NCBI GenBank assembly: GCA_033439295.1
Contig: JAVTLE010000016.1
Span: 1,984,001-2,048,000 of the forward strand
Direction: 5' to 3'
Origin: Deuterostichococcus epilithicus
Taxonomy: Eukaryota; Chlorophyta; Trebouxiophyceae; Prasiolales; Stichococcaceae
DNA length: 64,000 nucleotides
In this document: positions 29,462 to 31,617 of the stretch, piece after piece
Position numbering within the stretch: position 1 is the first letter of the stretch
Layout: each line of letters starts with the position of its first letter
Program-made: the position numbers and the translations under genes
Notes under the pieces: generated by a model
What the model was told of the DNA's origin: nothing
Seen by the model: the letters and a program-made list of their open reading frames with translations, nothing else
Databases searched by the model: none

Positions 29462-30041
29462 AGAGCCGGCGGGGCAGGATGACGCCGCGGTTCAGCGCTT
29501 AGGAGAAGAATTGAAGCACGAGCTTGACTCGTGTGTCAGCATCACAACTTGATTCGACGAATTCAAGGTTCCTTCTGCAACCAGCGCTGCATTCCATCCT
29601 TGTTCCCTAGTGTGAATGGACATGCAAGCACAGCGTTGGATTGCTGCATTGCGAGCGCCTGAACATGAGCGCTTCAGGTTGGTTGAAACAGGTGTAAAAT
29701 ACCTAGTGTCAATACATGCCCACTTCTACTCCGCTCAGCAGGGCGATTCTTCCACATTGAGTCCTACATCAGAACCTTCTGTGCACCCTGCGCTCGCTTG
29801 GACGATTGCGCCTGTGGTGGTGCGGGTGTGGTGTGCCTCTGGCGGCCGGACGTTCCCCAGCTTGATTTGATCTTGAGCCTTGTGACTCGCCATCGTTGTT
29901 CGTCTGTGATGGGCAGCAGCAGAACGACGCCGTAGAGTGGTTTCCCGGGCCGCCGCCTCTGCCACCCTAATATCACGCATCGTCGATGCATCGCACCATG
30001 TGCGTGCTGGCAGCATCCATCACCGTCCTCGAGTCCAATGT
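29462..30041. other. Intergenic, 3' of the second LHCA gene
   Basis: 580 bases with no recognisable coding sequence, leading into the foldback element. Confidence 0.5.
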
Positions 30042-30078
30042 TGGCTTTCTTCCGTTGTATGCATCTTTTCTTCCGTTC
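30042..30078. repeat. Outlying repeat unit of the foldback element
   Basis: One further unit of the element's core (GGCTTTCTTCCGTTGTATGC and then CTTTTCTTCCGTT) lies just outside the left terminal inverted repeat. It has no partner outside the right end, so it may be left from an earlier or nested insertion. Confidence 0.6.
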
Positions 30079-30081
30079 CGC

Positions 30082-31446
30082 GCGCTCCCTCCCTCCCTCC
30101 CTCTTCTCTTGTCTCTCCTCTGTTGTATGCGGGTTCTTTCTTTTCTCTTCTTTATCCGCTTCAAGACATGGTTCAACGGAAAAGTCGGACGTGGCGTGCA
30201 GTGCTGGCGGCGCTTATCCGAGAGTCTTAGTCCTTCGAAAAACATCAGCATGCAACATGTTTGTTTTCTTCCGTTGGCGCTGCCACGGAAGAAAACAAAC
30301 TTACAACGGAAGAAAGTCTTGACTTGGCTTTCTTCCGTTGTATGCATTTTTTCTTCCGTTGCAGCGCCAATTGAAGAAACCAAACACACAACGGAAGCAA
30401 GGAATGTTGGCGCTGCAACTGAAGGAAAATGCATACAACGGAAGAAAGCCAGGACTGGGACTTTCTTCCGTTGTATGCATTTTTTCTTCCGTTGCAGCGC
30501 CGACAGAAAAAGCCAAACACACAACGGAAGCAAGTCCCAGTGCTGGCTTTCTTCCGTTGTATGCGTTTTTTCTTCAGTTGCAGCGCCAACCGAAGACCAC
30601 AGACACACAACGGAAGAAATCGCCAACAGAAGAAAACATACATACAACGGAAGAAAGCCACATTAAGACTTTCTTCCGTTGCAGCGCCGACAGAAGAAAC
30701 CAAACACACAACGGAAGCAAGGAATGTCGGCGCTGCAACGGAGGAAAAAATGCATACAACGGAAGAAAGCCAAATCAGGACTTTCTTCCGTTGTATGCAT
30801 GGTTTCTTCCGTTGCAGCGCCAGCCGAAGAAAACAAACACACGACGGAAGAACAGCAACGGAAGAAACCATGCATACAACGGAAGAAAGGAATGTCGGCG
30901 CTGCAACGGAGGAAAAAATGCATACAACGGAAGAAAGCCAAATCAGGACTTTCTTCCGTTGTATGCATGTTTTCTTCCGTTGCAGCGCCAGCCGAAGAAA
31001 ACAAACACACGACAGAAGAACAGCAACGGAAGGAAAGATGCATACAACGGAAGAAAGGAATGTCGGCGCTGCAACGGAAGAAGAAATGCATACCGCGGAA
31101 GAAAGTAGTCAAGACGGGACTTGCTTCCGTTGTGGGTTTGGTTTTTTCTGTTGGCGCTGCAACGGAAGAAAAAATGCATACAACGGAAGAAAGCCAAATC
31201 AGGACTTTCTTCCGTTGTATGCATGTTTTCTTCCGTTGCAGCGCCAGCCGAAGAAAACGAACATGTTGCATGCTCATGTTTTTCGAAGGACTAAGACTCT
31301 CGGATAAGCGCCGCCAGCACTGCACGCCACGTCCAACTTTTCCGTTGAACCATGGCTTGAAGCGGATAAAGAAGAGAAAAGAAAGAAACCGCATACAACG
31401 GAGGAGAGAGAAGAGAAGAGGGAGGGAGGGACGAGGGAGGGAGCGT
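30082..31446. mobile_element. Foldback-type element: long terminal inverted repeats around a multi-palindrome core
   Basis: The outer about 200 bases (30082-30285) are repeated in inverted orientation at the right (31446-31215): a CCCTCCCTCC tract, TGTATGCGG-TTCTTTCTTTT, CTTTATCCGCTTCAAG, ATGGTTCAACGGAAAAGT, GGACGTGGCGTGCAGTGCTG, GCGCTTATCCGAGAGTCTTA, GTCCTTCGAAAAACAT. Between them is an array of palindromes built from CTTTCTTCCGTTGTATGCAT and TTTTTCTTCCGTTGCAGCGCC with their complements; for example 30738-30822, 30895-31000 and 31155-31250 each form near-perfect hairpins with arms of about 40 bases and a loop of about 10. No transposase or other supported gene is present; the long open frames on both strands arise from the repeats. 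This architecture matches foldback (FB/TIR) DNA elements and large MITEs. No clean target-site duplication was found. Confidence 0.75.
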
Positions 31447-31617
31447 CGCATTCGCTAGATTCCCAGTACGCAAGAAGTCGGGGGACTATCAGTTTCACCT
31501 TGTTTGCCGAGAGATCTGCGAGCCTTATCGGCCGTGATCACCTCCACAGCGGTTGCTGGCTCGACGCACACACCATCCACCTATCCAATCCAGCGCGTGT
31601 GTCGCTCCGAAGCAGCC
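31447..31617 (+). promoter_or_regulatory. 5' region of the third LHCA gene, abutting the foldback element
   Basis: Only about 170 bases lie between the element and the ATG at 31618, so the promoter or 5' untranslated region is very close to, or partly in, the element. Confidence 0.5.

What the first reader, a model, noticed from the sequence alone, without database searches (positions are those of the whole stretch)
30042..31446. A 1.4 kb foldback element of nested palindromes between two LHCA genes
Almost every base belongs to an inverted repeat. Outer arms of about 200 bases match in inverted orientation, and the core is a series of 80-90 base near-perfect hairpins from two short units (CTTTCTTCCGTTGTATGCAT and TTTTTCTTCCGTTGCAGCGCC). 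An extra unit lies outside the left arm. Long open frames occur on both strands without any protein family. No transposase is present. It ends about 170 bases before an LHCA start codon, so it could alter transcription or yield hairpin RNA. I do not recognise this unit from a named element family.
Basis: partly seen in the sequence, partly recalled or inferred. Interest (0 to 1): 0.78.

Follow-up and report, generated by a model that had tools for sequence, protein, structure and literature searches.

The report
Dispersed hairpin repeats with odd insertion scars
A 1.45 kb stretch of nested hairpins between two light-harvesting genes of what looks like a green alga is one of about 13 scattered copies of a repeat with no recognised gene, and four copies carry duplicated target DNA of very unequal length (about 22 to 140 bases), which the usual cut-and-paste foldback transposons do not leave.

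Summary
The window copy spans about 30028-31477: 312-base arms, 94% complementary, around hairpins built from TTTCTTCCGTTG. It is not a local expansion: 20 arm matches mark 12 copies on 7 contigs of the 46.8 Mb genome; a 13th place has core only. Two arm types recur at separate loci, so copies spread as units. None of 12 frames scanned reaches a Pfam cut-off.

The new result is the insertion scar. Four of 13 copies have flanking direct repeats of about 22-26, 61, 66 and 140 bp beside their ends; 0 of 156 mismatched flank pairs score as high. The other nine, the window copy included, show none. Outer ends are truncated at different points, one inside an unrelated nested repeat. Two of 26 junctions carry the genome's telomere unit.

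This does not fit Mutator/FB-type foldbacks (8-10 bp duplications). I favour capture of element DNA, often incomplete, into widely staggered breaks that are then filled in. Reverse transcription by a LINE is the main rival. Hairpins show no compensatory changes, so a selected hairpin RNA is not supported. New variant of a known kind; mechanism inferred.

The parts
30028..31477 (.). whole foldback copy, as bounded by homology to other copies
   Evidence: L009:1529-2978, window = L009 + 28499; no target duplication found (score 10 against a null median of 11)
30028..30089 (+). outer left end, type B (contains the 'extra unit'); shared with L010 right, L013 right and L012, shorter here than in L010 and L013
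30090..30401 (+). left arm of the large inverted repeat
   Evidence: 312 nt, 94%
31120..31431 (-). right arm of the large inverted repeat
   Evidence: the 121-nt arm centre is 98% identical to the left arm and 70-85% to arms of other copies
31432..31477 (-). outer right end, type A; shared with L010 left and the first copy in L011, shorter here
30258..31262 (.). core of nested hairpins built from TTTCTTCCGTTG-type units
30325..30404 (+). hairpin unit, z -4.4
30458..30537 (+). hairpin unit, z -5.9
30544..30623 (+). hairpin unit, z -4.4
30778..30895 (+). long stem hairpin, z -12.2
30946..31063 (+). long stem hairpin, z -11.0
31117..31196 (+). hairpin unit, z -6.0
30690..31025 (+). 168-bp tandem duplication inside the core (30690-30857 and 30858-31025, 96%)

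Best explanation
The window holds one copy of a dispersed, apparently non-coding foldback family. Shown: about 13 copies at separate places, two arm types shared between loci, ends truncated at different points, flanking duplications of about 22-26, 61, 66 and 140 bp in four copies, telomere units at two junctions. Inferred: the family moves when element DNA, whole or broken, is captured at a break whose two strands are cut tens of bases apart; filling in the overhangs duplicates the target, and now and then telomerase adds a TTTAGGG unit to the broken target end before joining. The palindromic core would make the element prone to extrusion and breakage and so a frequent donor. No transposase of its own is proposed. 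The window copy is taken to be an older member of its own arm subgroup.
For: Dispersal: 20 arm matches at 12 copies with two different arm queries, plus a core-only place. Units move whole: alpha arms of L010 left, L011 (both), L013 left and L017 right are 92-96% alike while the two arms of L010 are 89% and of L017 85% alike; alpha groups with support 0.94. Target duplications: 4 of 13 true flank pairs score 24 or more (232, 117, 117, 35), 0 of 156 mismatched pairs do (best 22). For L010 and L015 the search found the duplicated sequence at its two flanking places only. Truncation with duplication: the 140-bp repeat of L015 abuts a copy that stops about 27 bp into a nested repeat. Telomere units: 2 of 26 junctions (31 bp each) have TTTAGGG or CCCTAAA, against 10 in 209,330 bases of held loci, 3 of those 10 being at these two junctions; the orientation extends the target's 3' end; CCCTAAA is the repeat at the start of C14. 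Precedent: passages of PMC7215372 describe telomeric insertions with target duplication at staggered breaks in horse.
Against: Nine of 13 copies, the window copy included, show no duplication. Captures at breaks elsewhere more often lose than duplicate target bases (PMC7215372 Table 5: 20 deletions, 3 duplications of 66). Overhangs of 61-140 nt are long for a chance break. A break model does not explain why this sequence was captured so often. Junction coordinates of L010, L011b, L015 and L017 were refined after the repeats were seen; for the first three, homology alone puts the ends 0-9 bp away, inside the 25-bp tolerance; in L017 one repeat starts 19 bp beyond the arm. Only two telomere junctions.
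Confidence: 0.5

Rival explanations
1. The copies are reverse transcripts: an RNA of the element is copied into a nicked target by the enzymes of a LINE (target-primed reverse transcription, as for SINEs), giving variable target duplications and truncated copies.
For: Variable, sometimes long duplications are usual for LINEs ('several to several hundred nucleotides' for L1, passage in PMC1291365; title only, in a reference list, of a paper on R9 with an exceptionally long duplication). 64 RVT_1 matches in this genome, among them a clustered class that I read as Zepp-like LINEs (class by recall, not tested).
Against: No constant 3' end and no tail shared by copies: both sides vary. L010 has both of the fullest end types seen. 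The RNA would be a giant hairpin. The four duplications are G+C-rich without an evident common nick site (by eye). No LINE insertion was examined for its duplication length.
Confidence: 0.23
2. It is an ordinary non-autonomous Mutator/FB- or P-type foldback transposon; the long duplications and ragged ends came later.
For: Long internally repetitive inverted arms, a non-coding middle and nested insertions are the foldback plan (passages on Tm1 and Tetris).
Against: Tm1 and Tetris have 8-10 bp duplications; none of 13 copies shows a duplication of that size near its ends above the null (an 11-bp repeat at L013 lies 150 bp from one end; a short duplication with mismatches could hide in the null). 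At least five outer end types exist. No transposase domain in the frames scanned; no genome-wide transposase search was made.
Confidence: 0.17
3. The flanking repeats are assembly or haplotype-overlap artefacts at hard-to-assemble hairpins.
For: Hairpins assemble badly, and the assembly has scattered N.
Against: The repeats differ by about 2-9% between their two copies. None of the element loci L009-L018 or L028 contains N; N was reported only in other loci. The effect recurs on C1 (two loci), C12 and C18.
Confidence: 0.05
4. The hairpins are a functional unit, for example a small-RNA precursor or a regulator of the neighbouring light-harvesting gene.
For: Strong stems; position about 140 bases before a gene.
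Against: No excess of compensatory changes (1 pair with a double change against a shuffled mean of 2.2); RNAalifold proposes only 6 pairs, none compensatory; no Rfam hit among the 150 listed reaches its gathering score.
Confidence: 0.05

Closest known systems
Foldback elements of the Mutator kind (FB, Tm1, Tetris)
   Same: Long inverted arms with internal repeats, non-coding middle of variable size, nested insertions, rearranged copies (passages).
   Different: Target duplications of about 22-140 bp instead of 8-10; several kinds of outer end; no MULE transposase recognised in the frames scanned.
Galileo (P superfamily, foldback-like)
   Same: Long internally repetitive inverted repeats (abstract start).
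   Different: P-type elements leave 7-8 bp duplications (recalled); none seen here.
LINE-mobilised SINEs and truncated LINEs
   Same: Variable-length target duplications, truncated copies.
   Different: No constant 3' end, no shared tail, palindromic body.
Interstitial telomeric insertions at repaired breaks
   Same: Telomere unit added to a broken target end, occasional target duplication (passages of PMC7215372).
   Different: Here one or two units accompany a foldback copy of about 1 kb or more.
Hairpin-capped extrachromosomal DNA by template switching (ODIRA)
   Same: Inverted-repeat DNA that can leave its locus (title and start of abstract only, PMC10766183).
   Different: ODIRA concerns amplified chromosomal segments; no extrachromosomal form was looked for here.

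Membership tests
Mutator/FB-type foldback transposon | long inverted arms with internal repeats | tested here: met
Mutator/FB-type foldback transposon | 8-10 bp target duplication | tested here: not met
   4 of 13 copies have 22-140 bp, the other 9 are at null level
Mutator/FB-type foldback transposon | MULE transposase in an autonomous relative | tested here: inconclusive
   12 frames from the window copy, L013 and L016 scanned, none over a Pfam cut-off; no genome-wide search
Mutator/FB-type foldback transposon | fixed terminal sequence | tested here: not met
   at least five outer end types, truncations
LINE/SINE (target-primed reverse transcription) | variable-length target duplication | tested here: met
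LINE/SINE (target-primed reverse transcription) | constant 3' end with tail | tested here: not met
LINE/SINE (target-primed reverse transcription) | RNA intermediate | not testable with these tools
   no transcript data
Helitron | no target duplication, one fixed hairpin end | tested here: not met
   the nested 1-kb repeat, not the foldback, looks like this
Break-captured DNA with telomere units | telomere unit at the junction | tested here: met
   2 of 26 junctions, telomere repeat seen
Break-captured DNA with telomere units | single-copy empty site in a relative | not testable with these tools
   no relatives held

The most novel reading that the evidence does not exclude
A class of mobile DNA with no enzyme of its own: a palindromic element that spreads because it breaks, and is captured, whole or in part, at breaks with overhangs of tens to over a hundred bases, sometimes after telomerase has primed on the target end, so that fragility itself is the means of transposition.
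Probability: 0.2. Interest if true: 0.75.

Novelty: new variant of a known kind. Interest (0 to 1): 0.5.

Why it matters
Foldback repeats are normally filed as transposase-dependent, with a short fixed target duplication. A family with the foldback body but long, unequal duplications, copies truncated at insertion and telomere units at two junctions suggests that palindromic DNA may spread by a repair or reverse-transcription route. Its copies give sequence-readable records of how this genome repairs breaks.

Tried and rejected
Local repeat expansion: rejected, dispersed copies. Viral source: the exact 20-mer is absent from IMG/VR, which does not exclude diverged relatives. Autonomous copy: three copies (L010, L016, L017) hold a 1-kb insert, but this is a separate repeat with 57 matched pieces in all; 20 of 20 other loci holding it, read with flanks, contain no foldback motif. 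The 840-bp middle of L013 matched nothing else except 80 bp in L011. A tRNA/SINE head in L011 and L013: a B-box-like string seen by eye, but ARAGORN finds no tRNA in those loci, no tRNA is among the 150 Rfam hits listed of 156, and it is not an independent repeat. Dropped. Functional hairpin RNA: see rivals. L013's 11-bp repeat was not counted because it lies 150 bp from the end. L028 (two partial copies) and the first half of L011 are partial but were kept in the 13.

Limits: genome searches score only the best candidates; 100 of 108 pattern hits were listed; one listed hit, C16:270839, is outside the 13 places and looks like a decayed relative. The organism was not identified. Literature: ten searches of an open-access library; I saw no description of this family in their listings, but the library is partial. 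A find in PMC8226300 gave no passages.

Full report
The sequence. Window 30028-31477 is a foldback. The 312-nt arms (30090-30401, 31120-31431) are 94% complementary. The core is a run of hairpins made from TTTCTTCCGTTG-type strings, two forward, loop, two reverse, with a CAGCGCC loop (by eye); 7 of 8 stretches tested fold far better than shuffles. A 168-bp stretch is tandemly duplicated within the core. Light-harvesting frames lie on both sides (the upstream one just under the cut-off).

A family. The arm query finds 20 arm matches plus one 26-bp match, and a different arm query returns the same 20 places: eight inverted pairs and four single arms, on C1 (5 copies), C10, C12, C14 (2), C16, C18 and C19. 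A core-only copy lies at about C16:11,328-11,887. The core 20-mer has 108 hits, 0 for its reversed control.

Units that move whole. In a 121-nt stretch of 20 arms, alpha arms (L010 left, L011 twice, L013 left, L017 right; L028 more distant) group with support 0.94, and beta arms (L010 right, L017 left, L013 right, with L012 right, L014 and L015 near) recur likewise. L010, L013 and L017 each have one alpha and one beta arm. The window copy's two arms are 98% alike here but 70-85% like others: its own subgroup, or arms evened out against each other.

Ends. Outside the arms the copies share sequence in pairs, not all together: A (L010 left, L011, part in the window right end), B (L010 right, L013 right, part in the window left end), C (L014, L015), D (L012, L014), E (L016, L018). 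Others stop inside an arm or the core. L015 stops about 27 bp into the nested 1-kb repeat.

Scars. A constrained alignment of left against right flanks gives scores of 232 (L015, 140 bp), 117 (L010, 66 bp), 117 (L011b, 61 bp) and 35 (L017, 22-26 bp). The other nine of 13 score 8-11. Of 156 mismatched pairs the best is 22, the median 11. Ends fixed by homology alone lie within 9 bp of the repeats in L010, L011b and L015; in L017 one repeat starts 19 bp beyond the arm. The L010 and L015 repeats were found at their two flanking places only; the other two were not searched. Their two copies differ by about 2-9%, so the insertions are not fresh.

Telomere units. The left junction of L013 reads ...AATGGGT-TTAGGG-TTTAGGG-arm, and the right junction of L011b ends in AACCCTAAA before its repeat. 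Two of 26 junction windows have the unit, against 10 in 209 kb of held loci, three of which are at these junctions. CCCTAAA arrays stand at the start of C14 and, degraded or short, at three more of 8 contig ends examined. The orientation fits extension of the target's broken 3' end.

Function of the hairpins. On 47 distinct hairpin units, 91.1% of paired cells are standard pairs, but only one pair shows a double change (shuffles 2.2 on average; 489 of 500 reach it), and RNAalifold itself predicts only six pairs. The palindromes look inherited and decaying, not maintained pair by pair. Rfam matches listed are microRNA-shaped, apart from one bacterial sRNA model, and below threshold.

Reading. 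Duplications of 8-10 bp mark the Mutator-type foldbacks that I could check, and that test fails here. Two routes remain: break capture with filled-in overhangs (preferred because both ends vary, one duplicated copy, L010, has the fullest form of both ends, and telomere units sit at junctions) and LINE-type reverse transcription (duplication lengths fit, a constant 3' end is missing). Neither is shown. The window copy has lost or never had a duplication, so its own arrival cannot be read.

Noticed in passing
L010:2066-3070, L016, L017 and L029-L048: A separate ~1-kb repeat (57 matched pieces, a lower bound) nests in three foldback copies. It ends in a hairpin plus CAAACTAA and shows no clear target duplication by eye: Helitron-like in appearance, no Helitron protein sought.
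   Followed up: partly
L050-L055 (C4, C7 twice, C6, C9, C16): LTR retrotransposons (Ty3/gypsy by eye) 98.6-99.9% identical over 3.48 kb: recent activity.
   Followed up: no
G000, RVT_1 matches: A second reverse-transcriptase class clusters at one stretch on many contigs, like the Zepp clusters (one per chromosome) reported for Coccomyxa (passages of PMC3446292). Possible centromeres; clusters not counted.
   Followed up: no
L049:491-1566 (C16:270,290-271,365): A different inverted repeat (65-nt arms, 88%, 946 nt apart) around a single decayed foldback unit.
   Followed up: no
L012:1555-1595: The truncated left end of this copy carries a short inverted repeat across the junction (cctcgcccgcc and ggcgggcgagg), as if the end had folded back during joining (by eye).
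   Followed up: no
C1:1,839,000-1,856,500: Two copies 15 kb apart (L014, L015) share the same left end to within a base or two; only L015 has the 140-bp duplication, suggesting a local copying event.
   Followed up: partly
C1: Five of the 13 copies lie on this one contig of 2.58 Mb.
   Followed up: no
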